This document shows positions 39,810 through 59,167 of a stretch of DNA of 64,000 bases, one piece after another. The position numbers and the translations under genes were made by a program. The DNA lies in assembly GCF_001441165.1 (NCBI RefSeq), contig NZ_CP013126.1, positions 2,261,551-2,325,550 on the forward strand. Reading direction: 5' to 3'. The notes under the pieces are model-generated. The model saw only the letters and a list, made by a program, of their open reading frames with translations, did no database searches and had not been told where the DNA came from. The DNA is from Acidipropionibacterium acidipropionici (GTDB taxonomy: Bacteria; Actinomycetota; Actinomycetes; Propionibacteriales; Propionibacteriaceae). Position 1 is the first letter of the stretch. Every line of letters starts with the position of its first letter.

Positions 39810-39878
39810 CCCAATGTGGCGCGGAGCGGCGGCCCGGTGCCGGAACCGGGGGTTCGCGCCGTCTGGCGCCACATTGGG
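39810..39878. repeat. Palindromic interspersed repeat, copy C
   Basis: 69 bp with 12-bp ends CCCAATGTGGCG and CGCCACATTGGG. It shares GCGGAGCGGCG, GGTGCCGGAACCGGG and CGCCGTCTGGCGCCACATTGG with copy B, while the inner loop bases differ slightly. It lies between the DUF3175 gene and the acetyltransferase gene. Confidence 0.85.
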
Positions 39879-39951
39879 ACCCGCCGGGCCGGGCACGGGC
39901 GTGGATAGGCTGGCGGGCGACGGCATCCGGACCACACGTGACGGAGACCCG

Positions 39952-40629: not shown

Positions 40630-40639
40630 CCTCAAGGGC

Positions 40640-41146: not shown

Positions 41147-41985
41147 CTCGTTCCCGCACGTTCGCGCAGGTCGATGTCTTCTCCTCGGCCCCTTACCGCG
41201 GCAATCCGGTCGCCGTCATCCTGGACGCCGAGGGGCTCAGTGACGAGGAGATGCTGCGGATCGCCCGCTGGACCAACCTGTCCGAGACGACATTCGTGCT
41301 GCCGCCGGCAGCTCCCACGGCCGACTACCGCCTGAGGATCTTCACCCCCGGGGGAGAGCTGCCCTTCGCCGGACACCCCACCCTCGGATCGGCTCGCGCA
41401 TGGCTCGACCACGGCGGTGTCCCCCGTAGCGGCGACGTGATCGTCCAGGAATGCCGTGCGGGTCTGATCGACGTGCGACGTGGCGAGGGCATCCTGTCCT
41501 TCGCCGCCCCGCCGACGCTGCGCGGCGGGCCCCTCGGCGCGGCCGATCTGGATCGCTTCGTCGGCGCACTTGGGATTGCGCCGGATCAGGTCGTCTCCCA
41601 CCAATGGGTCGACAACGGGCCGGGCTGGGCGGTGCTGAGGCTCGCCACCGCCCAGGAGGTCCTGGATCTTGAACCCGACCTGACCCGGATCCCCGACGCC
41701 ATGGTCGGGGTGATCGGCGCTCACCCCGACGGCGCTGAGGAGGATTTCGAGATGCGTACGTTCGCGCCCGGGGTGGGCGTCGCCGAGGACCCGGTGTGCG
41801 GGTCCATGAACGCATCGGTGGGGCAGTGGCTGATCCGCACCGGCGCAGTTCCCGGTGGGTACCGGGTCTCGCAGGGCACCAGACTCGGGCGGGCCGGGCG
41901 GATCACGATCACTCCCGGACAGGACGGCTCCGTGTGGGTGGGCGGGGCGGCCACCACACTGTTCCGAGGTGAGGCGTTCGCCTGA
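41143..41985 (+). CDS. PhzF family isomerase
   Basis: A 280-residue protein with the PhzF/DapF-like fold. It opens FAQVDVFSSAPYRGNPVAVI and has WTNLSETTFVLPP, containing the conserved Glu, FTPGGELPFAGHPTLGSA, with the GHPT loop, and EDPVCGSMNASVGQWL near the end. Such proteins are isomerases or epimerases of mostly unknown substrate. The GTG start overlaps the arsM remnant. It is followed after 42 bp by ybaK. Confidence 0.9.
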   Translation: MTRSRTFAQVDVFSSAPYRGNPVAVILDAEGLSDEEMLRIARWTNLSETTFVLPPAAPTADYRLRIFTPGGELPFAGHPTLGSARAWLDHGGVPRSGDVIVQECRAGLIDVRRGEGILSFAAPPTLRGGPLGAADLDRFVGALGIAPDQVVSHQWVDNGPGWAVLRLATAQEVLDLEPDLTRIPDAMVGVIGAHPDGAEEDFEMRTFAPGVGVAEDPVCGSMNASVGQWLIRTGAVPGGYRVSQGTRLGRAGRITITPGQDGSVWVGGAATTLFRGEAFA

Positions 41986-42027
41986 CGGTCGGGGAAGCCC
42001 AGACATCCGAGAGGACAAGGAGAGACA

Positions 42028-42498
42028 GTGAGTGTTGAAGGGGTTCAGGAGTTTCTCGATTCCCACCACACCGGTCTGAGAGTCATCGAGCCCGAGGCCG
42101 ACACGTCGACTGTGGAGGCGGCTGCCGCGGCCCTGGGCGTGACGCCCGCCCAGATCGCCAAGACTCTGGCGGTGAGGGCCGGGGACCGCGTGGTCCTGGT
42201 GGTCACCGCCGGCACCGCGCGGCTCGCCAACGCCAAGTTCCGCGCCCGGTTCGGGGCCAAGCCCCGGATGCTGCCCGGACCCGAGGCACAGGCTCTTACC
42301 GGGCAGCCGGTCGGCGGCATCAGCCCGTTCGGGCACGACGGCGGCATCGAAGTGTTCTGCGACGAGTCCCTGCACGCCTTCGGCATCGTGTTCCCCGCCG
42401 GCGGAAGCCCTAACAGTGCGGTGCGCGTCACCCCCGACCAGATCGCCGAACTGACCGGAGCCCAGTGGGTCGACGTCACCAAGGAGCCGACGTCGTGA
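42028..42498 (+). CDS. YbaK/EbsC-family aminoacyl-tRNA deacylase
   Basis: A 156-residue YbaK-fold protein that hydrolyses mischarged aminoacyl-tRNA in related families. It has AAALGVTPAQIAKTLAVR (conserved Lys), LVVTAGTARLANAKFR, GGISPFGHDGG and NSAVRVTPDQIAEL. GTG start with AAGGAG 6 nt upstream. Its end overlaps the next racemase gene by 4 nt, making a coupled pair. The exact tRNA substrate is not known. Confidence 0.9.
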   Translation: MSVEGVQEFLDSHHTGLRVIEPEADTSTVEAAAAALGVTPAQIAKTLAVRAGDRVVLVVTAGTARLANAKFRARFGAKPRMLPGPEAQALTGQPVGGISPFGHDGGIEVFCDESLHAFGIVFPAGGSPNSAVRVTPDQIAELTGAQWVDVTKEPTS

Positions 42499-43199
42499 GA
42501 ACTCTCGGACTGATCCACGGGATGAGCCCCGTGTCCACCGTCGACTTCTACGAGGGGGTCAACGCCCGCGTCAACGAGGTGCTCGGCGGCAACGGGTCCG
42601 CCGACATGCTGCTGGCCAGCGTCGACTTCGCCAATGTGGACCACTGGGTCCAGGCCGGTGCGTGGGACGAGTTGCGCGCCTACCTCGTCGACAAGGCCGT
42701 CTCGCTGGCGGCCGCCGGGGCCGACTTCCTGGCCATCGGGAGCAACACGGGTCACATCGCGGCCGACGCCATCGGCGGGGCCGTCGACCTGCCGCTGCTG
42801 CACGTCGGCGACGTGGTCGCCGAGGAGGCGGCTGCCCGGGGCGCCCGCACACTCGGACTGCTGGGCACCAGCGTCGTCACCGAACTGCCGTTCTACCGGA
42901 ACAGGCTCGAGTCCCACGGCCTGGCGGTTCTCACACCGTCTGCCGACGATCGTGCCTTCGCCCACCGCATCGTCTTCGGCGAGCTGTCCCACGGCGTCTT
43001 CACCGACGAGTCGCGCAGCGAACTGATCCGCATCATGCGCGGCCTCATCGACGCCGGGGCCGAACTCATCGTGCTCGGCTGCACCGAGTACGGCCTGCTG
43101 GTCGCCGACACCGACGCTCCCGACATCCCCCGGCTGGACACCAACGAGGTGTTCATGGACGCCGTGTCCCGGGCGATCCTGGAGGAGCCGGCCCGCTAG
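42495..43199 (+). CDS. Asp/Glu racemase family protein lacking the first catalytic Cys
   Basis: A 234-residue member of the aspartate/glutamate racemase family. It begins RTLGLIHGMSPVSTVDFYEGVNARVNE. The first catalytic cysteine, normally in CNTxH, is Ser in AIGSNTGHIAAD, whereas the second is kept in LIVLGCTEYGLL. Some racemases of this family use Thr there, so activity or altered specificity remains possible. It is coupled to ybaK and related to, but distinct from, the racemase at 56001. Convergent with the hemerythrin gene. Confidence 0.88.
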   Translation: MRTLGLIHGMSPVSTVDFYEGVNARVNEVLGGNGSADMLLASVDFANVDHWVQAGAWDELRAYLVDKAVSLAAAGADFLAIGSNTGHIAADAIGGAVDLPLLHVGDVVAEEAAARGARTLGLLGTSVVTELPFYRNRLESHGLAVLTPSADDRAFAHRIVFGELSHGVFTDESRSELIRIMRGLIDAGAELIVLGCTEYGLLVADTDAPDIPRLDTNEVFMDAVSRAILEEPAR

Positions 43200-43666
43200 A
43201 GCGGTCCGAGGACGTCGGCCACATTCGCATCCAGGGCCAGAGTGCCCAGAACCGTGAGGAGTTCTCGCTCCTCGTAGCGGAAATGCGACTCCATGATCGC
43301 CGCGATGCCCTCCAGATGGCTCTCCAGCTGGTCGGGAGGCAGGTCTCTCCCCAGAGACGTCTCGAACCCTGCAACGAGAGTCCCGATCATCGCGTGATCC
43401 TGCTCGAGTTTCCGCAGCGTCGGCGCCAGCTCCGGATGCTCGGCGGCGATGGCCGGGAACAGGGTGCGATCCTCGCCCTGGTGGTGGCCGGTCAGAGCGG
43501 TGCAGAAGCCGTGGCAGAACAGCAGCAGTTCACGGGTCGGGAGAGCGGTCGTCTCCCCGGCCCGTGCGGCGTCCAGGGTGACGTGCAGGGCTTCGCGCAG
43601 TCTGGTGTGGACGGCGCGCAACTCGAGCCCCCAGGCGATGAGCCTGGCCTTGTCGCCCTCAACCAT
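43196..43666 (-). CDS. Hemerythrin-like HHE-domain protein
   Basis: A 156-residue four-helix protein with hemerythrin ligands: LIAWGLELRAVHTRL, GHHQGEDRTLFPAI, LEQDHAMIGTLVAGFE and MESHFRYEERELL. The His and Glu residues fit a diiron site. In actinobacteria such proteins are linked to nitric oxide, oxygen or redox stress. The start is MVEGDKARLIAWG (43666); earlier in-frame codons have no support. It overlaps the racemase stop by 4 nt. Confidence 0.87.
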   Translation of the reverse strand: MVEGDKARLIAWGLELRAVHTRLREALHVTLDAARAGETTALPTRELLLFCHGFCTALTGHHQGEDRTLFPAIAAEHPELAPTLRKLEQDHAMIGTLVAGFETSLGRDLPPDQLESHLEGIAAIMESHFRYEERELLTVLGTLALDANVADVLGPL

Positions 43667-43798
43667 GACAGGGTGGGGGAGTGGACGGGATCGCCATCGT
43701 CCTCCTCCTCGATCCGACGCCTCCATGCCTGGCACGGTCTGCCACCGGCACGCGACGCAGGCGTCACGCTACCGGCGCCCGGTTCAGCCCCTCCGGTT

Positions 43799-43866
43799 CC
43801 CAATGTGGCGTCCAGCGGCAAGAGACGCCGAAGACGGGTCCGCGCGCCGCTGAACGCCACATTCGG
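43799..43866. repeat. Palindromic interspersed repeat, copy D
   Basis: 68 bp with 20-nt arms CCCAATGTGGCGTCCAGCGG and CCGCTGAACGCCACATTCGG, matching at 18 of 20. The right arm resembles copy A (CGCTGAGCGCCACATTCGGG). It sits between the hemerythrin and DUF6157 genes. Confidence 0.85.
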
Positions 43867-43905
43867 TACAGGCCGTGGAGCGCCTCCGGCGGGGATACTG
43901 GGGGC

Positions 43906-44310
43906 ATGGGAACCACGAACTACAGGATGACCTTCATCCAGGTGGCCGAGGACTGCCCGGTCGACGCCGCCCAGCAACCGCCCGTGGGCGCGAAGGGCCC
44001 GAGTGTGGCCGCCTACTCCCTCATCAATGAGCATCCCTACGAGCTGACCAGTGACGATGTGCTGTTCGAGGTGAACGCGATCCGCAAGGAGATTGCCGAG
44101 CGGGACCGGGCCGCGGCGCGTGAGGCGTTCTTCGCCAAGTCCCAGGCCTGCCTGCGGTCCTCACCCCTGACGAAACGGTACGGGTGGGGCATCCATCACG
44201 ACGCCGAGGGACGGGTCGCACTCGTCGCGCTGGGGTCCGAGGAGTACGAGCGCCTCGCCTCTGATCCCGACGTCAAGCAGCTCAGGGCCATGAGGTCCAG
44301 GCGGGCGTGA
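43906..44310 (+). CDS. DUF6157 family protein
   Basis: A 134-residue protein opening MGTTNYRMTFIQVAEDCPVDAAQQPP, then VAAYSLINEHPYELTSDDVLFEVNAIRKEIAERDRAAAREAFFAKSQACLRSSPLTKRYGWGIHHDAEGRVALVALGSEEY. I recognise it as DUF6157; a cold-shock-like or other known fold is not visible. Function unknown. It starts at ATG 43906, shortly after palindrome D. Confidence 0.75.
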   Translation: MGTTNYRMTFIQVAEDCPVDAAQQPPVGAKGPSVAAYSLINEHPYELTSDDVLFEVNAIRKEIAERDRAAAREAFFAKSQACLRSSPLTKRYGWGIHHDAEGRVALVALGSEEYERLASDPDVKQLRAMRSRRA

Positions 44311-44350
44311 GCCGAGGGTCGCAAGGCCCGGCTTCGTGCGTAGCGAAAAC

Positions 44351-44382
44351 TCCACTGAATAAGTGGAATATTTCGTCCACTT
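44351..44382 (+). promoter_or_regulatory. Putative TetR operator upstream of NmrA gene
   Basis: TCCACT-GAATA-AGTGGA (44351-44367) and AAGTGGA-N8-TCCACTT (44361-44382) form two overlapping inverted repeats of TCCACT. They lie 40-70 bp before the nmrA start. The adjacent TetR gene is the obvious candidate ligand-controlled repressor. Confidence 0.5.
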
Positions 44383-44422
44383 CTCCTACGGTCGACCAGA
44401 TCAACCGGAAGGAGAGAACGAC

Positions 44423-45292
44423 ATGAGCACCAACAACCAGAACAGCTCATCGGATGTGGTCGGCGTCGTCGGAGCCACCGGGCATCAGGGTGGGGCGACC
44501 GTGACCGCGCTCCTGGAGGCAGGCGCTCACGTGCGTGCCCTGGTCCGCGATGTCACGTCGCAGTCCGCCCAGAATCTGGCGGCCCGAGGCACGGAGCTGG
44601 TCATCGCCGACCTGGACCGGCCGGACGGGCTGGTGCCGGCTCTTGCCGGAGTAGATGTGCTGTTCGTCATGGCCACCTTCACCGGGCCGAACGGCACCGC
44701 GGGTGAGACCTCGCAGGGCCGGGCCATCGGGGACGCCGCTCAGGCGGCGGGGGTGAGCCGGATCGTCTACAGCTCGGTGGGCGGGGCGGAGCGGCACACC
44801 GGCATCCCCCATTTCGAGAGCAAACGGCGGATCGAGGAGTACCTCGAGACGCTCGCACCGTCGACCACCTTCATCCGGCCGACGTTCTTCATGGACAACT
44901 TCCTCCACAACTCCGAGCCGACGGTGGAGGACGGGACGGTGGTCGTCCGGCTGCCTCTGCCCGCGGGAATCCCGCTTCAGATGGTGTCGGTGCGCGACGT
45001 CGGACGGGCGGCCGCCCATGCCCTGCTGACCCCCTCGGACGTGCCGGGGGACACTGTGGAACTCGTGGGCGACGAGCTGACCGGGGAGCAGATCGCGGCC
45101 GCCTTCGGAGACGTTGAGGGCCTGCCGGCCCGGTACGAGCCGATCCCTGTCGAGGCGTTGGCGGACAAACCGGACCAGCAGGCGATGTTCTCCTGGTTCG
45201 CGCAACTTCCCGCCTACCGGGGCGACGCCCAGACCTCGCGCGCACTGGTGCCCGATCTGCTCGACCTGTGCGGATGGCTGGCACTGCAGTGA
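44423..45292 (+). CDS. NmrA-like NAD(P)-binding protein
   Basis: A 289-residue atypical short-chain dehydrogenase of the NmrA/HSCARG type. The Rossmann motif is VVGVVGATGHQGGATVTALLEAG (~12-34), then VRALVRD. Further features are SSVGGAERHTGIPHFESKRRIEEYL, where the Lys would be catalytic, and FIRPTFFMDNFL. Such proteins sense redox cofactors or reduce quinones. GAAGGAG ribosome site 8 nt upstream. Coupled to TetR by GTGA overlap. Confidence 0.88.
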   Translation: MSTNNQNSSSDVVGVVGATGHQGGATVTALLEAGAHVRALVRDVTSQSAQNLAARGTELVIADLDRPDGLVPALAGVDVLFVMATFTGPNGTAGETSQGRAIGDAAQAAGVSRIVYSSVGGAERHTGIPHFESKRRIEEYLETLAPSTTFIRPTFFMDNFLHNSEPTVEDGTVVVRLPLPAGIPLQMVSVRDVGRAAAHALLTPSDVPGDTVELVGDELTGEQIAAAFGDVEGLPARYEPIPVEALADKPDQQAMFSWFAQLPAYRGDAQTSRALVPDLLDLCGWLALQ

Positions 45293-45870
45293 GCGTCCCG
45301 GCGAGGAGGCCCCGCAGGGACGCACTGGCCAATCAGGAGCGGGTCCTGGCCGCGGCGGTGACGGCGAGGCTGCACGAGGGCCGGCAGATCCCCATGGCCG
45401 AGATCGCCAGGCTGGCCGGGGTCGGTGTCGGTACTCTCTACCGCCGCTTCCCCAACCGGGAGGCGCTCCTGAGCGCGCTCACTGAGCGCTCCTTCGCCCT
45501 GGTGCGCGACCTGGCAGCGGCGTCTGCGTCTCTCGAGGGGCCAGCCGTGGTCTGCCTGGAGCACTTCCTCGACGGCACGATCAGCCATCGCGACCAGCTG
45601 GTGCTGCCGATGCACGGCGGCCCGGTCGAGCTGTCGCAGACCGCAGTGCGGCTGCGCGATGAAGTGCGCGACGCCGTCGCACGGCTGGTCGAACGGGGCG
45701 TGGACGATCGCACCCTGCGCGAGGGGCTGACGCCGGACGACGTCATCACATTCGGGGCCATGCTCGCCCAACCCCTGCCCGGTGTCGCGGACTGGGACAC
45801 GGTGGCGAGGCGCCAGAAGGACATCTTCATCGCCGGAGTGGTCCCGGCGCCGGCCGGCTCCAGTGTGTAG
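45289..45870 (+). CDS. TetR-family regulator
   Basis: A 193-residue repressor with the N-terminal HTH: ERVLAAAVTARLHEGRQIPMAEIARLAGVGVGTLYRRFPNREALLSALTERSF (~18-70). The effector domain follows and is of the SbtR-like type. GTG start overlapping the nmrA stop. It probably represses the nmrA-tetR operon through the AGTGGA repeats upstream; the ligand is unknown. Confidence 0.9.
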   Translation: MSVPARRPRRDALANQERVLAAAVTARLHEGRQIPMAEIARLAGVGVGTLYRRFPNREALLSALTERSFALVRDLAAASASLEGPAVVCLEHFLDGTISHRDQLVLPMHGGPVELSQTAVRLRDEVRDAVARLVERGVDDRTLREGLTPDDVITFGAMLAQPLPGVADWDTVARRQKDIFIAGVVPAPAGSSV

Positions 45871-45923
45871 AGACACCCGGGCCAAGGCACACATTCCGAG
45901 ACAAGCAGGCAAGGAGTACAGAC

Positions 45924-46511
45924 ATGCGAACCCTGGTCATCGGCGCGGCCGTGGAGGCCGGCATCCGAAGGGTGGTCTTCTCCTCGGTCATCCATCCCGG
46001 ACTGTCACTGATCAACCACCGGGCGAAGGGCCCGGTGGAGGAGGCGATCTACGACTCCGGGATGGAGTATGCCGTTCTGCAGCCTGCCCTGTTCTTCCAG
46101 AACTTCGCCGGGGCCTGGGGCCCGACTGTGGCCAGCGGCGTACTGGCCGAGCCGTGGTCGGCCGAGACTCGGTTCTCCCGGGTGGACTACCGCGACGTCG
46201 CAGAGGCGGCCGCAATCGCGCTCACCGAGGACCGTCTTCTGGGCGGCACCTACGAGCTGGCGGCGCCGGGTCTCCATAATCGCCACGACGTCGCCGCGAT
46301 GATCGGCCGCATCACGGGTCGAGACATCCGGGCCGTCCGCAGTGACCCGGCCCGGATGAACGTCCCGGAGGGCCTGCGGGCCATGTTCGCCCACTACGAC
46401 CATGCCGGCCTGGTGAGCAACCCGTTGACGCTCACCGCGGTGCTCGGGCGCGAGCCGCGGATGCTGGAGGAGTACCTCAACGAGCTGAACCGGGCCGATA
46501 CGCGGGAGTAG
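45924..46511 (+). pseudogene. NmrA/NAD(P)H-binding protein with N-terminal internal deletion
   Basis: 195 residues; family members have ~285. It opens MRTLVIGA, the natural start of these proteins, but then jumps directly to AVEAGIRRVVFSSVIHPGLSLINHRAKGPVEEAI, which belongs about 90 residues further on. The rest of the protein, including YAVLQPALFFQNF and RVDYRDVAEAAAIALTE, is normal. The deletion removes most of the NAD-binding Rossmann motif but keeps the frame. A good AAGGAG site is retained. Confidence 0.8.
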
Positions 46512-46569
46512 CTCCCGACATTCGGTTCAGCCCGCGTCCGGGAGGTCTGCCGACGCTACGATCAGGGCC

Positions 46570-47892
46570 ATGGCGACCGTACTGGCCTGGCTCGACGGGG
46601 ATACGAGGCATCGCCAGCGGATGGTCGACATGCTCAATGCGATGGGGGAGAAGACGGCGCTGGACGAGCTTGGCTTCGGGACCATCCGCGACACCTTCGC
46701 CGATGCCCTGTTCCCCGCCACCTCGACCCAGCACACTCACATCCGCTACCTGCTGTTCATCCCATGGATGTTCCGGCACATCGCGGCGGATCCCAGCCTC
46801 AACAGACGAGCGAAGAAAAACGACCGGGCAGCCAGAGACGTGCTCGCCGACGTGAACATGAAGCTCGTCGAGGCTCTCAAACAGGGGCAGAACTACGAGT
46901 CCCGGTCGTCCGCTGATAGGACCGGCGGCATCATCGGTGCCCAGGCCGGTCGGGCGCTGCGCCTGCTCCCCTCCAGCATCTACTGGTCGGCGATGAACAC
47001 CCTTCAGATCCACGAAGGGCCGGAGACATCCCCGATCCGCCTGCTCCATCGCGTCATGGACACCCGTGCTGCATCGACTCGGCGGAGATTCTCAGAGGAG
47101 ACCGACGAGACGGACCGCCTCTCCGACGGGCTCGCCTGGACGCTGCCTCCGGCTCCCGGCGACTTCCTCCGGGCCGATGCTCCTCTGACCTTCGAGCTGA
47201 CCCGCGACGAGGCGGAGTTCCTCGCAGGCCGCTTCCAGCGTGCCGAGCCGCTCCAGGACCGGCCGGTGCTCGAGCAGTCGATGACGGCCTGGTGCATCCG
47301 CGACCACGGCTGCAACACCACCGGCGCGCAGTACCCCTGGGAGCCCGAACTCCTCGAGGCGGCCCCCGACGATATCCGCCGCGTCCTGGTCCACGCCCGG
47401 GACTTCAACCTGCTGACCCGCGGAGCCGCCGCCCAGTACAACGTCCAACTCACCGAGGCCCTCGCCGATCAGACCGGCTCCGGGCCACACGTCGAGCGCG
47501 CCCACGAGGACCTGGATCGCTGGCTGGTCAAGGCCTCGGCGCACGGGGTGCTCTGGGATCGTGACGCGGGCCACCAGGACTTCACCGACTTCCGCGATCT
47601 TGTGCTCAGTCTCAACCCTCGGGTTGCCAGAACCACCCTCGATTTCGTGGAGAGGTGGCTGGACACCGCCCGGCTGGCCACAGCCCGGCACAGCACCACC
47701 GACAACCCGCCGGCACGGGATCTCCTCGCCGCCCGTGAGGCCGCGCTCAAGGGCCGCCGCGCCCGCCTCACGCATGCTGCGGCCCGCGAGGCGCGCACCG
47801 GGATGATGGGCACCGACTACGACTTCCGCTGGTCGGTCGCCCGCCAGTACCTGGATGACATCCACTCAGGTCTGGACGCGGCCGATGCCTGA
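46570..47892 (+). CDS. DUF6361 family protein (putative defence operon, gene 1)
   Basis: A 440-residue protein with the DUF6361 N-terminal motif LDELGFGTIRDTFADALFPATSTQHTHIRYLLFIPWMFRHIA (~36-77), which is characteristic. No enzymatic motif is visible. The middle has YWSAMNTLQIH and a helical C-terminal half rich in Arg, Ala and Asp. The fold and activity of DUF6361 are not known to me. It is the first of three genes with overlapping ATG/stop junctions (ATGCCTGA). Small intergenic gap (58 bp) from the truncated NmrA gene; a promoter probably lies there. Confidence 0.85.
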   Translation: MATVLAWLDGDTRHRQRMVDMLNAMGEKTALDELGFGTIRDTFADALFPATSTQHTHIRYLLFIPWMFRHIAADPSLNRRAKKNDRAARDVLADVNMKLVEALKQGQNYESRSSADRTGGIIGAQAGRALRLLPSSIYWSAMNTLQIHEGPETSPIRLLHRVMDTRAASTRRRFSEETDETDRLSDGLAWTLPPAPGDFLRADAPLTFELTRDEAEFLAGRFQRAEPLQDRPVLEQSMTAWCIRDHGCNTTGAQYPWEPELLEAAPDDIRRVLVHARDFNLLTRGAAAQYNVQLTEALADQTGSGPHVERAHEDLDRWLVKASAHGVLWDRDAGHQDFTDFRDLVLSLNPRVARTTLDFVERWLDTARLATARHSTTDNPPARDLLAAREAALKGRRARLTHAAAREARTGMMGTDYDFRWSVARQYLDDIHSGLDAADA

Positions 47893-49783
47893 ACGCGAGG
47901 ACGTCCTCAACCCAACGAGCCGACTCCTGCTATCCGACGCGCTGCGCCCGCCGCGCGGCTACGAATTGGATCTCGGCGTCGGGACGACATACTCCCTCAA
48001 CCTCGACGCCCTCCTGCTCATCCCGTTCATCCTGTCCTCGGGCCCGGCCGACGGCGATGCCGAGGCGCACCCGACGCGCATGCTGGCCTCGCTGCGCCGG
48101 TTCGCCGACCGTCTCACGGTCTTCGCCCAGGCGGGCAACATCCAGGCGCCGAGGACCTACCGGCCCTTCCACACATTCCTGGAGGACGCCGTCGTCCAGG
48201 TCACCGCCACCCATGAGGGCCGCATCTTCCACCCCAAGATCTGGGCGCTGCGATTCACCGCTCCCGGTCGCCAGGCCCGGCACCGGCTCGTGTGCTCATC
48301 GCGCAACATCACCACCGAGACCATGTGGGACACCATCCTCAGCTGTGACGAGGCCGCATCCGGATCTGACGTTGTCATCGATGCCGCTCCGCTGGTGGAC
48401 TTCCTGCGCACCCTCCTCACCCTGCCCGGCGCCGATGCGCTCACCCCCGGACACCGGAACCAAGTGAACAGCCTCATCGGCTCGCTGTCGGCGATCGGTG
48501 GCTTCGAAGTCCCGGAACCCTTCGAAGGTGGCCGCCTCGTCCCTCTCGGGCTTCCCGGTGCGGACCTGGAGGCCCAGTGGCCCATCCCTCACGGGGAACG
48601 TTCCTGGGGCGTCATCTCACCCTTCCTGGACCCCGGCACTCTCCAACGTCTTCCACGATCAGGCAGTCCTCACATCCTGATCTCCCGGCCCGACACCCTC
48701 GACCGGTTGGCCGGGACGATCGATGGGCTCCGCCGCAGGCCCGACCTCAAAGTGATGAGCAGCTGGACCCAGGCGGCCGACGATGACGAGACATCGGCAG
48801 TCGAGTCCCGCGAGGGGCTGCACGCCAAAGTGTTGGCGTGGTGGGAGCACTACCGCGGCCACATCCTCCTCGGTTCGGCCAACTGCACCTCGGCCGCTTT
48901 CGGCGGCAATATCGAGTTCGGCGTCGAACTGTGGGCCGGCCTGCGCCAGAAGCACGGATGGATTCCCGGCGTTCTGGGCGAGGCCTCCGGCCTGGCCGAC
49001 GTCCTGGAGGACTACCGTCCCGATGCCAGCGACGTCGACGAGGAGGAGGCCGAGCAACAGGCTTTGCACCGCCAGGTCGAACTGGCCCTGGCACAGGTCG
49101 CCCTGGCCTGCCCGAGGCTGCGCGTCAGCGCGGTCGCCGGGGCGGCGGAACCCGCGTTCCAGCTGGCTCTGGAGGCGGCCGCCGCGGCCTTGTCCGCGCT
49201 GGACCGGCCGGGCTGGACGTCGACGGTGCGCCCGCTCAGCATCCCCCAGGAGGGTGCGGTGCAGATCTCGGGCGATGTTGAACCGGGCTGGACCCTCACC
49301 GAGTACGCGCGTGTCACACCCTGGCTCGTTCTGGAGGTCGACGCCGAAGCCGGCGACGCGACCTCCCATCTCGCCCGGGTTGTCAAGGCCGATCTGGTGC
49401 TGGATCCCGGTCTTCCCGCCGATCGGGAGGAACTTGTGATGCGTTCGGTTCTGTCCGATCCGGGCCGGATCCTGGCCTACCTGGGCATGTTGATCGGAGG
49501 TGACGAGACGGTTCTGCCCGAGGCAGGTGGCGCCCTCACAACCACGCACATCGGTGAGGGACCGGCAGAAGCCACGGCTGCGCCGATCGCGGAGATGCTG
49601 GAGCCCCTGCTCCATCTGGCCCATTCCGATCGGGCGCAACTGACCCGCGTGGGACGCGATATCGACGTCCTGTTGGCGCAGAGCCCGCAGGCGCCCGAGC
49701 TTCAGGAGTTGCGCACTTTGTGGGACGCGTTCGCCCCGCTCACGGAGTCGGCAGGTCACGAGGGGGAGGACCGGCATGGATGA
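47885..49783 (+). CDS. Phospholipase D-like protein with two HKD motifs (putative defence operon, gene 2)
   Basis: 632 residues. The PLD catalytic pattern H-x-K...N is present twice: His116-Pro-Lys118 (FHPKIWALRF) with Asn141 in SSRNIT, and His313-Ala-Lys315 (GLHAKVLAW) with Asn333 in GSANCTSAAF and Glu344. One chain with two motifs can make the full PLD active site, as in nucleases of the Nuc/BfiI and phospholipase group. No signal peptide or membrane segment is seen, so it is cytoplasmic. The last 200 residues are of unknown type. It is coupled to both neighbours by 8-nt overlaps, suggesting a complex of fixed ratio. Confidence 0.85.
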   Translation: MPEREDVLNPTSRLLLSDALRPPRGYELDLGVGTTYSLNLDALLLIPFILSSGPADGDAEAHPTRMLASLRRFADRLTVFAQAGNIQAPRTYRPFHTFLEDAVVQVTATHEGRIFHPKIWALRFTAPGRQARHRLVCSSRNITTETMWDTILSCDEAASGSDVVIDAAPLVDFLRTLLTLPGADALTPGHRNQVNSLIGSLSAIGGFEVPEPFEGGRLVPLGLPGADLEAQWPIPHGERSWGVISPFLDPGTLQRLPRSGSPHILISRPDTLDRLAGTIDGLRRRPDLKVMSSWTQAADDDETSAVESREGLHAKVLAWWEHYRGHILLGSANCTSAAFGGNIEFGVELWAGLRQKHGWIPGVLGEASGLADVLEDYRPDASDVDEEEAEQQALHRQVELALAQVALACPRLRVSAVAGAAEPAFQLALEAAAAALSALDRPGWTSTVRPLSIPQEGAVQISGDVEPGWTLTEYARVTPWLVLEVDAEAGDATSHLARVVKADLVLDPGLPADREELVMRSVLSDPGRILAYLGMLIGGDETVLPEAGGALTTTHIGEGPAEATAAPIAEMLEPLLHLAHSDRAQLTRVGRDIDVLLAQSPQAPELQELRTLWDAFAPLTESAGHEGEDRHG

Positions 49784-52700
49784 CGCTGACTGGCAGATCG
49801 ACGTCGAGGCCGAACTCGAACCGCTCAAGGATTTCCAGCGCCGGACCGTCGAGAACGCATTCAATCGGCTGTACGGCGACGCCGACCCGGTCGACTCCTT
49901 CCTCGTCGCCGATGAGGTCGGGCTGGGCAAGACCCTGGTCGCCCGCGGCGTCATCGCCCGCGCCGTCGACCACGTTCTGCGGATTGAGGGCCGCTCCCAG
50001 GCCCGCATCCTTTACATCTGTTCGAATGCCCAGATCGCCCGACAGAACCTGCCCAAACTCACGTTGGGCCCGAGAACCGCCCGCGCGGAACAGTCGGCGA
50101 CGCGCCTCACGCTGATGCCCGCCGCCCCGTCCTCGCAGCGTCTCACCTTCACCGCCTTCACCCCGGGCACCTCCATCAGCTTCGGCGATCCGCTGGGACA
50201 CGCCGACGAACGAGTCCGCCTCTACCTGCTGCTGAAACATGCCGGGATCGTCGACGACAGCACTGCAGAGTCGCGGGAGGCCTGGAGACAGTTCCTACGA
50301 GGGTGGTCGGGCCTCGAAAGCTTCTCGCACCAGATCAGCAGTGCGCAGGACAGGAGGATGTGGGACAGTCCGGACGAGCACCGCCTGGCCGAGGCTCTGC
50401 GCCGCGACCTCGATGAGGGAGTTGGGTTCGGGGCGGTGATCGGAACCGGTGATCCCGGACGGCGGCTGACGACGTCGCGCCTCATCGGGATCGTCGATGA
50501 GTTCCGTGGCGTGGACATTGAGCCGGACGGGGACCTGTCGAACAGGCGTACTGAGGCAGTCGCCGTCCTCCGGCGCCGTCTGGCCTGGCTCGTCGCCGCG
50601 TCATTCCGCCCGGATCTGGTGGTCCTCGATGAGTTCCAGCGGTTCAAGGACCTGTTGCCCGACCCCGCTGCCGATGACGCGCGCCGGGATGACGTGGAGT
50701 TCAGCCGCAAGTTGATGGCGATCATGCTCGGGCGGCTGGAGGGAGACGGGCGCCCGTCCAGGATGCTGCTCCTGTCGGCCACGCCCTACCGGATGTACAC
50801 CCAGGGCCGTGACGCCGAGGGCGACGAGCACTACGACGACTTCATCGCAACGGTCCGTGCCCTGGCAGATGGGAGGACGACGACGCCGTCCGGCCATTCT
50901 CATGCCGACTCGGTGGAGAAGGGCCTGGCAACTGTCCGTCGGGCCATGCGGTCTCATGATCTCGAACGTGCCCGGCAGGGGCGAGACCTGGTTCAGGACG
51001 AGCTGCGACGGATCATGTCACGGACCGAGCGGCTGGCCGCCACCCCGGATCGCGACGGCATGCTCACAACGGTGAACACTCCGGCCGGGCCACTGACGGC
51101 AGCAGATGTGGCCGACTACGTCTCCCTTCGGGCGGTGGCCCGCTGCGTGGGCTCCTACGACCCGTTGGAACTGTGGCGGTCCGCGCCCCACACGTTGGCG
51201 ATGATGGACGAGCGCACCCGCTACGACATGGAGAAGCGGATCCACCGCATCCTTCGACCTGACACGCAAGGCGAGGTGGATGATCGAGCCATCGCCGACG
51301 TCGCCGCAGCGCTGGCGCTACCCGGGCAGCATCGGGTGGCAGCACCGGTGTACGACGACGCCTCCGATTCCTCGAACGATGACGCCGGTGACGGGGCGCA
51401 GGGCGATGCGGACTCCCTCACAGGGTTGGCCCGGATGAGAATTGATGCCGGGAATCCGAAGATGCGCACGCTGATGAGGGACCTGTGGGGAGACTCTGGC
51501 GCGGAAGACGACGGCACCCCCGAGTCGTGGCGGATGATCTGGGTACCTCCCGCGATGCCTCGTCGCCGTCTGTCCGGCCCCTACCGGGGGGCCGGGCGCT
51601 TCTCGAAACGCCTCGTGTTCTCCCAGTGGGCGGTGGCGCCGAAGTCGATCTCGATCCTGGTGAGCAACCGCTCCCAGTCGCTGGCCCGTGATGCGGCGCG
51701 AAGCGTGCGAGGGGACAGCTGGCAACCGCTGAGGTATCCGCTGCGCCCGGGCGTCCGGAAGGAATCCGGGTCGCTGTCCAAGGTGTGGACGTGGGGGATG
51801 GCCTATCCCTCCTGGGTCCTGGCGGAGCTCGGCGACGTCACCGGGTACACGCGGCGGACCGGACAGAGCCTTCCCGTCGATCCGGACGAGCAGCGTCGGG
51901 ACGTGGCCGAGCGCCTGCGCCCCCGACTCGCGGAACTCGCCGAGCGGTTCGGCGAGGGCCGCGGCGCGGTGGACGCTCGATGGTACGGCGTCGCCGGGGT
52001 CCTGCTGGATCGCCTGGCGGCCACGGTGTCGGGTGCGCCATGGGTGGGCCCCGCGCGCCTTGGCCTGGTGGGCAGCCTGCCCGGGAATTCCGAGGGGATC
52101 CATGCTCATCTGGAAGCGCTCGACGACCCCGGGACCCTTGGTGCCCAGCCCGACGATCTCGCCGACCGGTTGGCCCAGCTGGCGCTGGCGGCGCCGGGAG
52201 TGTGCGCTCTGAGGGCACTGGCGGGCGTGGAGTCGGGGGACTCGAGTGAGCAATGGTCGGATGCGCTGCGGTGGAAGCCGGTGCGAAGCGGGGCGTTGCG
52301 GATCGGTTGGGCGATGCTCAGACTGTTCGACCGGGCCGAGATCCAGGCCGCCATCTGGGCCGGGTTCCAGGTGGACCACGGCCGCCGACTGGCCGAGGAG
52401 GATCCTGAATCCAGGTCCCAGGCATACCTGAGAGCGGCGCTGGACCAATGCCTGGCCGGGGACCTGGATGCTGTCTTTTCGGAGTACCTTCACCAGATCG
52501 GCGAGGCCGTCGGCATGTTCGAGTCCGGACGCGGGACTGACGCGATGACCAGGGTCGTCGACGAGGTCGTCTCAGCGCTGACCATCAAGACTGCCAACCA
52601 GCAGCTGCGGCCACTGACCGTTCAGGACGGTCGGGTCATGGAGGCCGAGCCCGAGAAGATGCCGTGCCGTTTCGCGCTGAGATACGGAGATGCGGCTGCC

Positions 52701-53366
52701 ACCGATCAGGCGGAGAACCGGTCGGAGATGGTGCGCACTGCTTTCAATTCGCCGTTCTGGCCGTTCGCCCTGGCGACCACCTCCGCCGGCCAGGAGGGGA
52801 TCGACTTCCATCGGTACTGCCGCTGTGTCGTCCACTGGAATCTGCCCAGTAATCCCGTCGATCTGGAGCAGCGCGAGGGGCGGGTCCATCGCTACAAGTG
52901 CCTGGCAGTGCGGCAGAACGTCGCGTCCACGTGGGGCCCCGACGTCAGGGTCTGGCAATCGCACGACCCCTGGAAGACCGTGTTCAGGATCGCCGAGGAG
53001 GCGGTCGCATCATCCGGTGCGGGCGATGAGATGCGACCGCTGTGGGTGTGGTCGCCGGATTCCGGCGACGGCGTCCGTATTGAGCGACGTGTCCTGCCGC
53101 TACCCCTCAGCCGGGAGCAGGGCCAGTACCGCCGTCTGGTGAGGATGCTCGGGAGCTATCGGATGGCCTTCGGCCAACCACGGCAGGAGGAGCTGCTCGC
53201 AGTGCTGGGTCCTGATGCCGATGACGCCGACCTGGCGCGGGCGGCGATGATCGACCTGACACCCAACGACCCGGCAGCGTCTACAGGCCCGTGGCCTCCA
53301 GAGCGGCCCGGACGTGAAGGGCGGTCGTCGGGAAGACCGCGACCGGTGAGTCCGCCCGGCCGATGA
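49776..53366 (+). CDS. SF2/SNF2-type helicase-like ATPase (putative defence operon, gene 3)
   Basis: 1196 residues. Walker A is VADEVGLGKTLVARG (~45-59), Walker B LVVLDEFQRF (Asp285-Glu-Phe-Gln), motif III LLLSATPYRM (~334), and the second lobe carries TTSAGQEGIDFHRYCRCVVHWNLPSNPVDLEQREGRVHRYK (~1000-1040), including the arginine finger of motif VI. Some 650 residues are inserted between the lobes. Such architecture fits DNA/RNA translocases in defence systems. The last 28 codons run antisense through a racemase remnant (53281-53366), so the C-terminus is probably not native. ATG overlaps the PLD stop (ATGGATGA). Confidence 0.85.
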   Translation: MDDADWQIDVEAELEPLKDFQRRTVENAFNRLYGDADPVDSFLVADEVGLGKTLVARGVIARAVDHVLRIEGRSQARILYICSNAQIARQNLPKLTLGPRTARAEQSATRLTLMPAAPSSQRLTFTAFTPGTSISFGDPLGHADERVRLYLLLKHAGIVDDSTAESREAWRQFLRGWSGLESFSHQISSAQDRRMWDSPDEHRLAEALRRDLDEGVGFGAVIGTGDPGRRLTTSRLIGIVDEFRGVDIEPDGDLSNRRTEAVAVLRRRLAWLVAASFRPDLVVLDEFQRFKDLLPDPAADDARRDDVEFSRKLMAIMLGRLEGDGRPSRMLLLSATPYRMYTQGRDAEGDEHYDDFIATVRALADGRTTTPSGHSHADSVEKGLATVRRAMRSHDLERARQGRDLVQDELRRIMSRTERLAATPDRDGMLTTVNTPAGPLTAADVADYVSLRAVARCVGSYDPLELWRSAPHTLAMMDERTRYDMEKRIHRILRPDTQGEVDDRAIADVAAALALPGQHRVAAPVYDDASDSSNDDAGDGAQGDADSLTGLARMRIDAGNPKMRTLMRDLWGDSGAEDDGTPESWRMIWVPPAMPRRRLSGPYRGAGRFSKRLVFSQWAVAPKSISILVSNRSQSLARDAARSVRGDSWQPLRYPLRPGVRKESGSLSKVWTWGMAYPSWVLAELGDVTGYTRRTGQSLPVDPDEQRRDVAERLRPRLAELAERFGEGRGAVDARWYGVAGVLLDRLAATVSGAPWVGPARLGLVGSLPGNSEGIHAHLEALDDPGTLGAQPDDLADRLAQLALAAPGVCALRALAGVESGDSSEQWSDALRWKPVRSGALRIGWAMLRLFDRAEIQAAIWAGFQVDHGRRLAEEDPESRSQAYLRAALDQCLAGDLDAVFSEYLHQIGEAVGMFESGRGTDAMTRVVDEVVSALTIKTANQQLRPLTVQDGRVMEAEPEKMPCRFALRYGDAAATDQAENRSEMVRTAFNSPFWPFALATTSAGQEGIDFHRYCRCVVHWNLPSNPVDLEQREGRVHRYKCLAVRQNVASTWGPDVRVWQSHDPWKTVFRIAEEAVASSGAGDEMRPLWVWSPDSGDGVRIERRVLPLPLSREQGQYRRLVRMLGSYRMAFGQPRQEELLAVLGPDADDADLARAAMIDLTPNDPAASTGPWPPERPGREGRSSGRPRPVSPPGR

Positions 53367-53459
53367 GCAGCTCGACCTCGGTGCAGCCCAGCACTATGCC
53401 GTGAACCAGTCCGCCGAGAACGCCCGACTCATTCCGCCCAGTACGCCGATCGTCTTCAT
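53281..53459 (-). pseudogene. Remnant of an Asp/Glu racemase gene
   Basis: This 179-bp stretch on the minus strand matches three pieces of the intact racemase at 56001-56690: its 3' end (from the TAG at 53281 through ATGAGCAGCTCGACCTCGGTG-like sequence), a short middle piece, and its 5' end, with the ATG at 53459. About 510 bp are lost. The helicase stop at 53366 lies inside it. The rest of the gap to 53736 holds no gene I can support. Confidence 0.8.
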
Positions 53460-53736
53460 GGGCCAGGAGCTGGAGGACGCCGCCCGGACCAGGACCCTGC
53501 GCGTGCAGCGTCTGCGCCCTACCGGAGGCGTCGCTTCAACGCGTTCATCGAAAGTGCGCACGGAAGCTGCCTTTGCGGCCTGATACCAATATCGCCGGCC
53601 TCGAACTGAGGCTCCGCGAAGGCTGGTGGTTTCAGCGAGGTCGATGCCCTCAGAGCCTCATCCCGACGGGTACGAAGATCGTGTCGGTGACACCGGCGGG
53701 CCGTACCCCACCTTCAACACTGAGTAGGGTTCATGA

Positions 53737-55799: not shown

Positions 55800-55984
55800 T
55801 CAGGTGGGAGTCGGCGCGGTTCGCGCTGAGATACGGCGACGCGGTTGTCACCGATCAGGAGGAGCACCGTTCGGAGGTGGTGCGCACCGCTTTCAATTCG
55901 CCGTTCTGGCCGTTCGTCCTGGCGACCACCTCCGCCAGCCAAAAGGGGATCGACTTCCACCGCTACTGCCGTTGCGTCGTCCAC
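55800..55984 (+). pseudogene. Relic of the helicase C-terminal domain
   Basis: Encodes FALRYGDAVVTDQEEHRSEVVRTAFNSPFW and on to FHRYCRCVVH in frame, matching helicase residues ~968-1022 with roughly 85 percent identity. Trp of VVHWNLP is a TGA stop here, and the conserved AGQEG of motif V is changed to ASQKG. Then the sequence continues directly into the racemase 3' end at 56001. Helicase sequence downstream of this point is absent. Confidence 0.85.
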
Positions 55985-56000
55985 TGAAGCTGCTCCGGGT

Positions 56001-56690
56001 CTAAAGCCCCGCCGCCTCCAGCGCTGCCCTCACATGAAGGGCGGTCGTCGGGAAGACCGGGACCGTCGAGTCCGCCCGGCCGATGAGCAGTTCGATCTCG
56101 GTGCAGCCGAGAATGATCCCTTCGGCCCCGCGGTCGACGAGGCGCCTGATGACCTCCCGGTAGGCGCGGCGTGACTGGTCGGTCACGATGCCGTGAACCA
56201 GTTCGTCGAAGATGATCCGGTGGACGGTGGCCCGATCGGCATCTTCGGGGACCAGCGACGTGATGCCATGCGCAGCGAGCCGGTCGCGGTAGAACGGCTG
56301 CTCCATGGTGAACGAGGTGCCGAGCACCCCGACCGTCGACAGACCGGCGGCGGTGATGGCCTCGGCGGTGGTGTCGCCGATGTGGAGGAAGGGGACGCCG
56401 ATGGCTGCGGTGATGCGGTCGGCGACGATGTGCATGGTGTTGGTGCACAGCACGATGAGCCCGGCCCCTGCCGCCTCGAGACGTTTCGCATGCTCGGCGA
56501 GGATGGCACCGGCGTCCTCCCAGTCGCCACTCTCCTGCAGGGCCTCGATCTCGGCGAAGTCCAGCGAGTCCAGGAGAATCGGCGCCGAGTGGTATCCGCC
56601 GAGCGTCTCGTGGACCTGCTCGTTGGCCATCCGGTACCAGTCCGCCGAGGACTTCCAGCTCATCCCGCCCAGCACGCCGATCGTCTTCAT
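56001..56690 (-). CDS. Aspartate/glutamate racemase family protein
   Basis: A 229-residue racemase with both catalytic cysteines: LIVLCNTMHIVAD (~84) and GIILGCTEIELL (~195). It begins MKTIGVLGGMSWKSSADWYRMANEQVHE, typical of aspartate racemases. It should be able to make D-Asp or D-Glu or a related amino acid; the window already has murI for D-Glu. The paralog at 42495 lacks the first Cys, and a 179-bp remnant of a close copy lies at 53281. The partner at the 3' side is the helicase relic. Confidence 0.9.
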   Translation of the reverse strand: MKTIGVLGGMSWKSSADWYRMANEQVHETLGGYHSAPILLDSLDFAEIEALQESGDWEDAGAILAEHAKRLEAAGAGLIVLCTNTMHIVADRITAAIGVPFLHIGDTTAEAITAAGLSTVGVLGTSFTMEQPFYRDRLAAHGITSLVPEDADRATVHRIIFDELVHGIVTDQSRRAYREVIRRLVDRGAEGIILGCTEIELLIGRADSTVPVFPTTALHVRAALEAAGL

Positions 56691-56895
56691 GAGGCGAGCG
56701 TATGAGGACCAGGCGATGGCTCAAGCCGAATCGTTCGGCGCCCGGTTTTCCCCCGCATAACTGCTGAACCGAGACAGGGCGTCCGCGCACGAGCTGTCGG
56801 TGTCGAGCCTCACCGCGTCAGGTCCCGCCGTCCGGTCGATGGCCTCCGCCCATGATGCGACCGTTCCAGGGAGATCTGCGGGGCGGTCGGCGAAC

Positions 56896-58236: not shown

Positions 58237-59052
58237 TCAGGGTTTGTGGGCCACCACGAAGATCCGCCGGAACGGCAGGGCGGTCAGGTGATCCCAGCCG
58301 TCGGCCGTCTCGATGAGCCTCGCCGGATAGGCGTCACGAAGTCGTGCGGCGTAGGCCCGGACGAACGGTTGCACCAGGTCGGGGGCATTGCGTTCCAATG
58401 TCGCCGTGGCCGGGCGCAGACCGGTGCCCTTGACCCATTCGAGCACCGGGTCGCGGCCCGTGAGCCACTGGATGTAGGTGGTCTCCCAGGCGTCCACCGT
58501 GTGGCCCTGCTCCATCAGCAGGGCTGCGTAGCCCTGTGCATCGTCCACGCTCTCGGGGCCCCGGAGGACGCCGCGCAGGACAGCGGCCCAGGGGCCGTCG
58601 GCCGCTGTCTCCCGCATCAGCCGGTGGCTCGGTGCATCGAAGTTGCCCGGGACCTGGAAGGCCAGCCAGGCGCCGCACCTCATGGTGGCGGCCCAGTGCC
58701 GAAGCAGGTCGCGATGATCCGGAATCCACTGCAGCATGGCGTTGCTGATCACCACGTCCGCGTGGGACACGTCCACGCCGTGAGCATCTTCCACTGAGAA
58801 CTCCAGACTTCCCCCGACGTCGGTTCTGCGCCGCAGTGCCGCGGCGGCTGCGATCATCTCCACCGAGGCGTCGACGCCGACCACGGTGGACGCAGGCCAT
58901 CGGTCCAGCAGGGTGGCGGTCGCGCTGCCAGGTCCGCAGCCGACGTCGAGCACTATCCCCGGCTCCGTGGCGCCGACGCGCGCGACCAAATCGTGGAAGA
59001 AGCGCTCCCTCTCCGCGACGAACTTGACGTACTGCTCCGGATCCCAGGCCAT
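58237..59052 (-). CDS. tam: Trans-aconitate 2-methyltransferase-like SAM enzyme
   Basis: A 271-residue class I methyltransferase. MAWDPEQYVKFVAERERFFHDLVARV matches the opening of Tam, followed by the SAM motif VLDVGCGPGSATATLL and DVVISNAMLQWIPDHRDLLRHWA. The C-terminal part contains WLTGRDPVLEWVKGTGLRP, again typical of Tam. It would methylate trans-aconitate, a spontaneous isomer that inhibits aconitase. An ATG six codons upstream is an alternative start. It lies downstream of tRNA-His on the same strand. Confidence 0.88.
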   Translation of the reverse strand: MAWDPEQYVKFVAERERFFHDLVARVGATEPGIVLDVGCGPGSATATLLDRWPASTVVGVDASVEMIAAAAALRRRTDVGGSLEFSVEDAHGVDVSHADVVISNAMLQWIPDHRDLLRHWAATMRCGAWLAFQVPGNFDAPSHRLMRETAADGPWAAVLRGVLRGPESVDDAQGYAALLMEQGHTVDAWETTYIQWLTGRDPVLEWVKGTGLRPATATLERNAPDLVQPFVRAYAARLRDAYPARLIETADGWDHLTALPFRRIFVVAHKP

Positions 59053-59167
59053 CACCACATGCTGGCCCATGCGCTCGGGCGGAAGCAGCAGCCACGGTTT
59101 CCATGGCTGATAGGGAAGCAGAAATACAAAGGCGGCCCCTACGTCGAAACGTCAGGGCCGCAGCTGG

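What the first reader, a model, noticed from the sequence alone, without database searches (positions are those of the whole stretch)
46570..53366. Candidate undescribed defence module: DUF6361 + two-HKD PLD + SF2 helicase
Three genes totalling 6.8 kb share two junctions of identical format, ATGNNTGA, each an 8-nt overlap, so they are tightly coupled. The pieces are typical of anti-phage systems: a PLD-family nuclease-like protein with complete HKD-like residues, a large SF2 ATPase with a very long insert between its lobes, and an N-terminal partner of unknown function. I cannot match the set to DISARM, Mokosh, Druantia or another named system from memory. The neighbourhood has lots of gene decay and duplication, as expected of a defence hotspot. 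The functional claim is inference.
Basis: partly seen in the sequence, partly recalled or inferred. Interest (0 to 1): 0.85.

Follow-up and report, generated by a model that had tools for sequence, protein, structure and literature searches.

The report
An Azaca anti-phage defence operon
The three overlapping genes are a complete copy of Azaca, a phage-defence system already named in the databases, so the find is mostly ordinary, although how Azaca works appears still to be unknown.

Summary
In detail: three ORFs (46570-47892, 47885-49783, 49776-53366) joined by two 8-nt ATGNNTGA overlaps. The claim that the set is undescribed does not hold. PADLOC-DB matches all three almost end to end: ZacA 2.7e-101, ZacB 1.7e-144, ZacC 7e-287. 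ZacC is the Azaca helicase (passage), and Azaca is already reported as enriched in Actinobacteria (passage). Of 80 relatives fetched by ZacC, 68 show zacA-zacB-zacC in order, 11 are cut by a contig end and 1 is truly incomplete. The trio evolves under purifying selection. ORFs beside 13 relatives include many defence genes (control); those beside the window copy do not.

Most likely mechanism (inferred): ZacC, an SF2/Snf2-like motor, works with ZacB, a PLD-fold phosphodiesterase with both half-sites in one chain, to attack invading DNA; ZacA is a helical partner without a convincing structural match. Refinement: ZacB half-sites are HxK...N...D/E; the classical HKD aspartate is R in half-site 1 of 72 of 81 sequences. 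New member of a known kind; modest interest.

The parts
46570..47892 (+). zacA: DUF6361 protein, 440 aa, predicted almost wholly helical
   Evidence: PADLOC ZacA 2.7e-101 over 1-435; Pfam PF19888 1.3e-38; model m923d0fcb48da, mean pLDDT 87.3, pTM 0.87
47885..47892 (+). zacA/zacB overlap ATGCCTGA (start of zacB over stop of zacA)
   Evidence: in-frame start giving an 8-nt overlap in 7 of 11 loci
47885..49783 (+). zacB: PLD-fold protein, 632 aa; PLD part about residues 3-391, then a further ~240 residues of unassigned function
   Evidence: PADLOC ZacB 1.7e-144 over 7-621; model m720359848c2d, pLDDT 87.9, pTM 0.91; structural matches
48230..48331 (+). ZacB half-site 1: H116, K118, N141, W148, D149
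   Evidence: each in 81 of 81 rows
48821..48916 (+). ZacB half-site 2: H313, K315, G330, S331, N333, E344
   Evidence: H, K, G, S and N in 80 of 81 rows (one gap), E in 80 of 81 with one D
49776..49783 (+). zacB/zacC overlap ATGGATGA
   Evidence: a start overlapping the zacB stop in 11 of 11 loci
49776..53366 (+). zacC: SF2/Snf2-like helicase-type ATPase, 1196 aa, with a 663-residue stretch between lobes
   Evidence: PADLOC ZacC 7e-287 over 9-1164; Helicase_C 4.7e-7
49920..49931 (+). ZacC motif I (GLGK, residues 49-52)
   Evidence: G51 and K52 in 84 of 84
50628..50639 (+). ZacC motif II (DEFQ, residues 285-288)
   Evidence: D285, E286 and F287 in 84 of 84, Q288 in 83 of 84
52779..52892 (+). 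ZacC motifs V and VI (residues 1002-1039, TSAGQEG ... QREGRVHR)
   Evidence: T1002, G1005, Q1006, G1008, Q1032, R1033, R1036 and R1039 in 84 of 84
55817..55993 (+). zacC fragment, internal piece of a second copy (59 model positions)
   Evidence: 88.8% identical to 52668-52845; ZacC model 7.6e-24, positions 821-879

Best explanation
The locus is a complete, selectively maintained Azaca (zacABC) anti-phage operon in an actinobacterial chromosome. Shown: identity and completeness of the three genes, their fixed order, conserved ATPase and PLD residues, purifying selection, and defence genes beside a sample of relatives. Inferred: ZacC is a DNA-dependent Snf2-like motor that loads on or moves along DNA. 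ZacB is a phosphodiesterase/nuclease whose two HxK...N half-sites, in one chain, form one composite active site that works with the motor. ZacA is a helical adaptor, sensor or inhibitor joining motor and nuclease. No single neighbour gene family recurs in more than 7 of 91 loci, so no fixed fourth partner such as a cognate methylase is seen, and self/non-self is more likely told by DNA state (ends, replication or repair intermediates, or a foreign modification) than by a cognate methyl mark. The outcome would be cutting or degradation of phage DNA. Identity as Azaca: about 0.97. Motor-driven DNA attack by ZacB-ZacC: about 0.6. Role of ZacA: about 0.35.
For: PADLOC full-length hits to all three Zac models; ZacC named as the Azaca helicase (PMC12278908, passage); PLD-like domain listed for Azaca (PMC10952713, passage). 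Trio order: 10 of 10 Actinomycetota loci taken with flanks (zacA split in two ORFs in one, L018) and 68 of 80 wider loci, with 11 contig-cut and 1 true exception, L043. DUF6361 hardly occurs outside it: 8 of 396 phylum genomes have it; 5 of these have ZacC, 1 has zacA then zacB running to the end of the held stretch of a 4,781-base contig, and 2 hold N-terminal fragments. In the family sample 9 of 97 have DUF6361, 8 with ZacC and 1 a fragment. Catalytic residues conserved. ZacB profile in the PDB: 7clg (SauUSI) 4.1e-7, the only clear hit; 2c1l (BfiI) 0.023, 4rct (NgoAVII) 0.18 and 6ehi (NucT) 0.47 are weak (first three named). Foldseek best is Tdp1, 2.2e-7 (TM 0.31 by query length, rmsd 9.3); VIA best rows F13 15.8, PLD 15.3, Tdp1 14.7, PLD4 14.1, PLD3 13.8 over residues about 3-391. 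ZacC profile weakly finds RapA (2.8e-4). dN/dS 0.29, 0.28 and 0.21 against the sister species (3' end of zacC left out). No neighbour family in more than 7 of 91 loci.
Against: No activity was measured here. PLD folds include lipid and nucleotide enzymes (one search lists phosphatidylserine synthase, PLD and polyphosphate kinase), so the fold alone does not prove a nuclease. Snf2-like ATPases such as RapA can remodel protein-DNA complexes rather than feed nucleases (recalled). The ZacA role rests on no structural match. The window copy is not in a defence island. groups neighbours by sequence family, so different methylases in different loci would not be pooled; methylase models were matched by flanking ORFs (type III by 2 of 65).
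Confidence: 0.65

Rival explanations
1. ATP-dependent restriction like SauUSI or CglI/NgoAVII: the complex recognises a DNA sequence or modified base, ZacC moves along DNA, and ZacB cuts when motors meet or a recognition site is engaged.
For: ZacB's only clear solved sequence relative is SauUSI, with BfiI and NgoAVII weakly behind. SauUSI combines a PLD nuclease and an SF2 ATPase that translocates, and CglI/NgoAVII split PLD and ATPase over two subunits (passages of PMC7913695, and PMC4267653).
Against: No B3, SRA or Z1 domain reached Pfam at E up to 1, though the C-terminal part of ZacB was hardly tested by fold search; no single methylase family is regularly linked. BfiI, SauUSI and NgoAVII form one site from two chains, whereas ZacB carries both half-sites in one.
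Confidence: 0.3
2. DNA-state sensor like Hachiman: ZacC senses damaged or replicating DNA and releases ZacB, which then degrades DNA broadly.
For: Helicase-plus-nuclease logic; the Hachiman abstract describes a sensor helicase and an effector nuclease (PMC12278908, search listing). No fixed self-marking partner.
Against: No HamA or HamB row in the PADLOC tables. The resemblance is one of logic only.
Confidence: 0.3
3. ZacB is a Tdp1/PLD3-like end-processing phosphodiesterase rather than an endonuclease, attacking DNA ends, adducts or single strands exposed by ZacC.
For: Foldseek ranks Tdp1 first; VIA best rows 14.7 for Tdp1, 14.1 for PLD4, 13.8 for PLD3. The half-sites lack a fixed HKD aspartate.
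Against: F13 and bacterial PLD rank as high or higher (15.8, 15.3), so the fold does not choose among activities; the sequence profile favours restriction nucleases.
Confidence: 0.2
4. The genes are a decayed, non-functional relic.
For: Nearby fragments of zacC and of a racemase gene show decay and duplication.
Against: All three frames are open, motifs intact, dN/dS 0.21-0.29 against the sister species.
Confidence: 0.04

Closest known systems
Azaca (zacABC)
   Same: All three components, full length, in order, with overlapping genes. Azaca is already reported as enriched in Actinobacteria (PMC10482375, passage), in one Halococcus strain (PMC13321033, passages) and in a Pseudomonas island hotspot (PMC12629846, passages).
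   Different: Divergent copy: apart from the sister species (76-79%), 22-43% identical to the relatives aligned. ZacC is 1196 aa against a median of 1080.5, with the longest inter-lobe stretch of 84.
DISARM (DrmC PLD, DrmD Snf2 helicase)
   Same: A PLD protein and an Snf2-like helicase; short local matches to DrmC and DrmD models
   Different: Far below cut-off (DrmC 24.3 vs 133 bits; DrmD 56.4 vs 610 bits); no DISARM family among 23 other window ORFs scanned
SauUSI; CglI/NgoAVII ATP-dependent PLD restriction enzymes
   Same: PLD nuclease plus SF2 ATPase; SauUSI is the clearest solved relative of ZacB
   Different: They carry SRA or B3 recognition domains and dimerise to build the active site (passages); ZacB holds two half-sites and the trio adds ZacA
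Tdp1 / PLD3 / PLD4
   Same: Two PLD half-sites in one chain (recalled), similar overall fold
   Different: Eukaryotic enzymes, no partner motor known to me; 10-16% identity
Hachiman
   Same: Helicase plus nuclease defence (listing)
   Different: No HamA/HamB match; three genes, PLD-fold component

Membership tests
Azaca | ZacA (DUF6361) component | tested here: met
   PADLOC ZacA 2.7e-101 over 1-435 of 440; PF19888 1.3e-38
Azaca | ZacB (PLD-like) component | tested here: met
   PADLOC ZacB 1.7e-144 over 7-621; PLD fold
Azaca | ZacC (SF2 helicase) component | tested here: met
   PADLOC ZacC 7e-287 over 9-1164; motifs conserved
Azaca | Three genes adjacent, same strand, order A-B-C | tested here: met
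Azaca | Protection against phages | not testable with these tools
   needs an infection assay; the founding paper (Millman et al. 2022, recalled) is not held
DISARM | DrmC and DrmD over curated cut-off | tested here: not met
   24.3 vs 133 and 56.4 vs 610 bits
DISARM | Further DISARM genes (methylase, DUF1998 protein; recalled) in the locus | tested here: not met
   no DUF1998 hit among the 28 window ORFs given to Pfam (8, 10 and 10) and no Drm family among 23; ORFs at 38755-39435, 40475-41143 and 58240-59070 have methyltransferase folds of PCMT or generic type
SauUSI/CglI/NgoAVII-type restriction | Target recognition domain (SRA or B3); for CglI/NgoAVII also a cognate methyltransferase | tested here: inconclusive
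   no B3/SRA/Z1 hit at E up to 1, but the ZacB C-terminal region was hardly covered by the fold search; no single methylase family is regularly linked
Hachiman | HamA and HamB | tested here: not met
   no HamA/HamB row in the PADLOC tables of the three proteins at E up to 1
Mokosh | Mko proteins | tested here: not met
   no Mko row for the three proteins at E up to 1
Tdp1/PLD3 fold group | Two PLD half-sites in one chain within a two-lobed PLD fold | tested here: met
   this is a fold resemblance and shows no activity

The most novel reading that the evidence does not exclude
Azaca is a three-part ATP-driven DNA-attack machine of its own kind: a Tdp1/PLD3-like single-chain composite active site with unequal half-sites (half-site 1 mostly HxKx4R, half-site 2 mostly HxKx4D/E), run by an Snf2-like motor with a ~600-residue insert and controlled by ZacA, a helical protein whose fold found no convincing match in the PDB or viral libraries, telling self from non-self without any methylase.
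Probability: 0.35. Interest if true: 0.5.

Novelty: new member of a known kind. Interest (0 to 1): 0.2.

Why it matters
It settles that this is not a new system and should be filed as Azaca. Papers of 2023 and 2026 list the Azaca mechanism as unknown (PMC10482375, passage; PMC12926258, passage, whose same row also lists Hachiman, so it is not fully up to date). The family now has a concrete, testable model: paired unequal PLD half-sites in ZacB, a Snf2-like motor, and a helical ZacA with 11 invariant columns in 74 sequences.

Tried and rejected
Undescribed system: rejected, PADLOC matches all three. DISARM, Mokosh, Hachiman: rejected as memberships; CglI/SauUSI-type restriction: membership inconclusive. 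A fixed fourth gene: not found; the commonest neighbour family is in 7 of 91 loci (ORFs of 90 aa or more within 5 kb; several loci are cut by contig ends and have little flank). Defence island around the window copy: not seen. Phages: one weak partial DUF6361 match (24.8% identity, 49% of the query) in an unannotated phage record, of 50,697 records. Plasmids: 34 of 72,556 records match ZacC at 1e-40, 19 of them Cronobacter. Structural neighbours of ZacA: none convincing in the PDB (best Foldseek E 0.19; best VIA Z 4.1) or in viral models (best E 0.32); this does not prove a new fold. L088 and L023 are the same gene set (contigs of equal length, 226,837 bases), so A5 and the 91 loci hold one genome twice (the rows differ in start; no two rows are identical).

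Literature: 'DUF6361' 0 papers, 'ZacABC' 0, ZacA/ZacB/ZacC/Zac 17 papers, none on defence by title. 'Azaca' as a whole word is in 28 papers, many of them about brain arteries or blood disease by title (earlier searches). I read passages on Azaca in six of them, none giving a mechanism; the other defence papers in that list I saw as listings only. The founding paper is not held, so its experiments are recalled, not seen.

Limits of the defence-neighbour test: the test set was 65 of 86 chosen ORFs (L028-L030 dropped for the residue limit), from 13 loci; L024 and L031-L103 were not scanned. One ORF (L025:18858-21698) was added by hand after my boundary rule had excluded it, which leans towards defence. 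The control was 86 of 146 ORFs, from 11 of 18 stretches at round-number places I chose, in 5 genomes, 4 of which are among the 13 test genomes. The tool counts models, not ORFs, shows the first 25 of 95, and many models are redundant. Mirror-tree correlations (0.84-0.90 in 68 loci) are not corrected for species relatedness.
Full report
What is there. The window holds three forward ORFs, 46570-47892, 47885-49783 and 49776-53366. The two junctions are ATGCCTGA and ATGGATGA, each an 8-nt overlap of a start with the preceding stop. Overlap is a family habit: in 11 Actinomycetota loci an in-frame start giving an 8-nt zacA/zacB overlap exists in 7, and at zacB/zacC the overlapping start nearest the stop gives 4 nt in 8, 8 nt in 2 and 14 nt in 1. 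A Cronobacter plasmid copy has annotated overlaps of 7 and 8 nt.

What it is. PADLOC-DB gives end-to-end matches: ZacA 2.7e-101, ZacB 1.7e-144, ZacC 7e-287. The Hachiman paper lists ZacC as the helicase of Azaca (PMC12278908, passage) and a domain survey lists a PLD-like domain for Azaca, citing Millman et al. 2022 (PMC10952713, passage). A 2023 survey already counts Azaca among the systems enriched in Actinobacteria, mechanism unknown (PMC10482375, passage). The founding paper is not held; that it showed protection against phages is my recollection. Matches to DISARM models are short and far below the cut-offs.

How firm the trio is. ZacC (E at most 1e-40) is in 2 of 5 genomes of the genus, 8 of 97 of the family and 5 of 396 drawn from the phylum, the window's own genome counted each time; 0 of 14 control genomes ring at that cut-off. 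DUF6361 is in 9 of 97 and 8 of 396. Of the 4 DUF6361 genomes without a ZacC match, one has zacA followed by zacB running to the end of the held stretch of a 4,781-base contig, and three hold only N-terminal fragments. All 10 loci taken with flanks have the order A-B-C; in one, L018, zacA is split into two ORFs. A scan of GTDB species genomes with the ZacC alignment gave 528 confirmed stretches, of which the best 80 were kept. In these 80, 68 show zacA-zacB-zacC in order on one strand, 11 are cut by a contig end, and one (L043) has 9 kb upstream but only a partial zacB and no zacA. Three of the 68 (L035, L041, L046) have zacA cut at the contig start, and L074 has it in two ORFs. Titles name Actinomycetota, Cyanobacteria, Planctomycetota, Acidobacteria, Anaerolineae, Proteobacteria and methanogenic archaea. 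The distances of the three proteins correlate (r 0.84-0.90 over 68 loci), which fits joint inheritance but is not corrected for relatedness. Against the sister species dN/dS is 0.29, 0.28 and 0.21: the three are maintained.

Neighbourhood. Beside 13 relatives, 65 flanking ORFs matched 95 PADLOC families at 1e-20; the 25 shown include type III, type I and type IIG restriction, Druantia, Dpd, Hhe and MkoA models. 86 control ORFs from arbitrary stretches matched 5 families (WYL, Dsr1, subtilase). The limits are told under Tried and rejected. No neighbour family recurs in more than 7 of 91 loci. The window copy has ordinary neighbours and only partial PADLOC matches to shared folds. In the sister species the trio lies between the same hexapeptide and glycosylase genes, but the 6 kb between 40584 and 46552 is replaced there by about 100 bases. 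Downstream, pieces of zacC and of a racemase gene are duplicated: 52668-52845 with 55817-55993 (88.8%), 53279-53391 with 55999-56111 (86.7%) and 53405-53460 with 56636-56691 (87.5%); the ORF at 56004-56690 is an Asp/Glu racemase (2e-47).

Anatomy. ZacC carries motif I GLGK, motif II DEFQ, SATP and a QREGRVHR motif VI, the checked residues invariant or nearly so in 84 sequences, and a 663-residue stretch between the lobes (family median 602). Its profile weakly finds RapA. ZacB has two half-sites. Half-site 1: H116, K118, N141, D149, each in 81 of 81 rows. Half-site 2: H313, K315, N333 in 80 of 81 and E344 in 80 of 81. The K+5 place of the classical HKD motif is R in 72 of 81 in half-site 1 and D or E in 69 of 81 in half-site 2; in this copy it is W with E one place later. 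The model (pLDDT 87.9, pTM 0.91) matches Tdp1 best by Foldseek (2.2e-7); by VIA the best rows are F13 15.8, PLD 15.3, Tdp1 14.7, PLD4 14.1 and PLD3 13.8. By sequence profile the one clear solved relative is SauUSI, with BfiI, NgoAVII and NucT weakly behind. ZacA is modelled as almost wholly helical (pLDDT 87.3) with no convincing structural match.

How it most likely works. Shown: gene set, order, conserved catalytic residues, selection, and company in a sample. Inferred: ZacC drives, ZacB hydrolyses phosphodiester bonds at a composite site, ZacA couples or restrains them, and invading DNA is the target. SauUSI and CglI/NgoAVII show that a PLD nuclease can be run by an SF2 ATPase (passages), but they have recognition domains that I did not find here. 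With no fixed methylase partner, DNA state or foreign modification is the likelier cue. My searches found no mechanistic paper on Azaca in the held library (passages).

Verdict. A real, intact Azaca operon: known system, new member.

Noticed in passing
window 52668-53460 and 55817-56691: The junction of zacC with a racemase gene is duplicated: a 59-position zacC fragment next to a minus-strand Asp/Glu racemase ORF at 56004-56690, and racemase pieces directly after the intact zacC (86.7-88.8% identical). It looks like recombination involving a second, decayed Azaca copy.
   Followed up: partly
window 42753-43099 and 56086-56432: A plus-strand Asp/Glu racemase gene (42465-43196) is 67% identical over this stretch to the minus-strand racemase at 56004-56690: two diverged copies flank the operon region.
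   Followed up: partly
L072 (Gemmatimonadetes MAG): Two complete zacABC operons lie convergent within 16 kb (6812-13228 forward and 16324-22672 reverse).
   Followed up: no
L018 13489-14687 and L074 6255-7324: zacA is split into two ORFs in both; whether by mutation or sequencing error is not known.
   Followed up: no
L154 (Cronobacter sakazakii plasmid NZ_CP011048.1) 3902-11159: A tyrosine recombinase gene directly precedes a complete DUF6361-PLD-helicase trio, suggesting a mobile unit; 19 Cronobacter plasmid records match ZacC.
   Followed up: partly
L025, L030, L033, L036, L071, L100, L103: One large protein family occurs near the operon in 7 of 91 loci. In most of these loci a second helicase with a weak ZacC match lies near by, and my boundaries had taken in some of those helicases, so the short distances printed are partly to that helicase and not to the operon. 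Possibly a second, co-located defence system.
   Followed up: no
window 59393-60607: Integrase-core (rve) transposase-like ORF about 6 kb downstream of the operon.
   Followed up: no
window 39521-46552 versus L014 3907-5094: About 6 kb of genes upstream of the operon (methyltransferase-fold, PhzF-like, editing domain, racemase, DUF6157, SDR-type, TetR) is missing from the sister species at the same place.
   Followed up: partly
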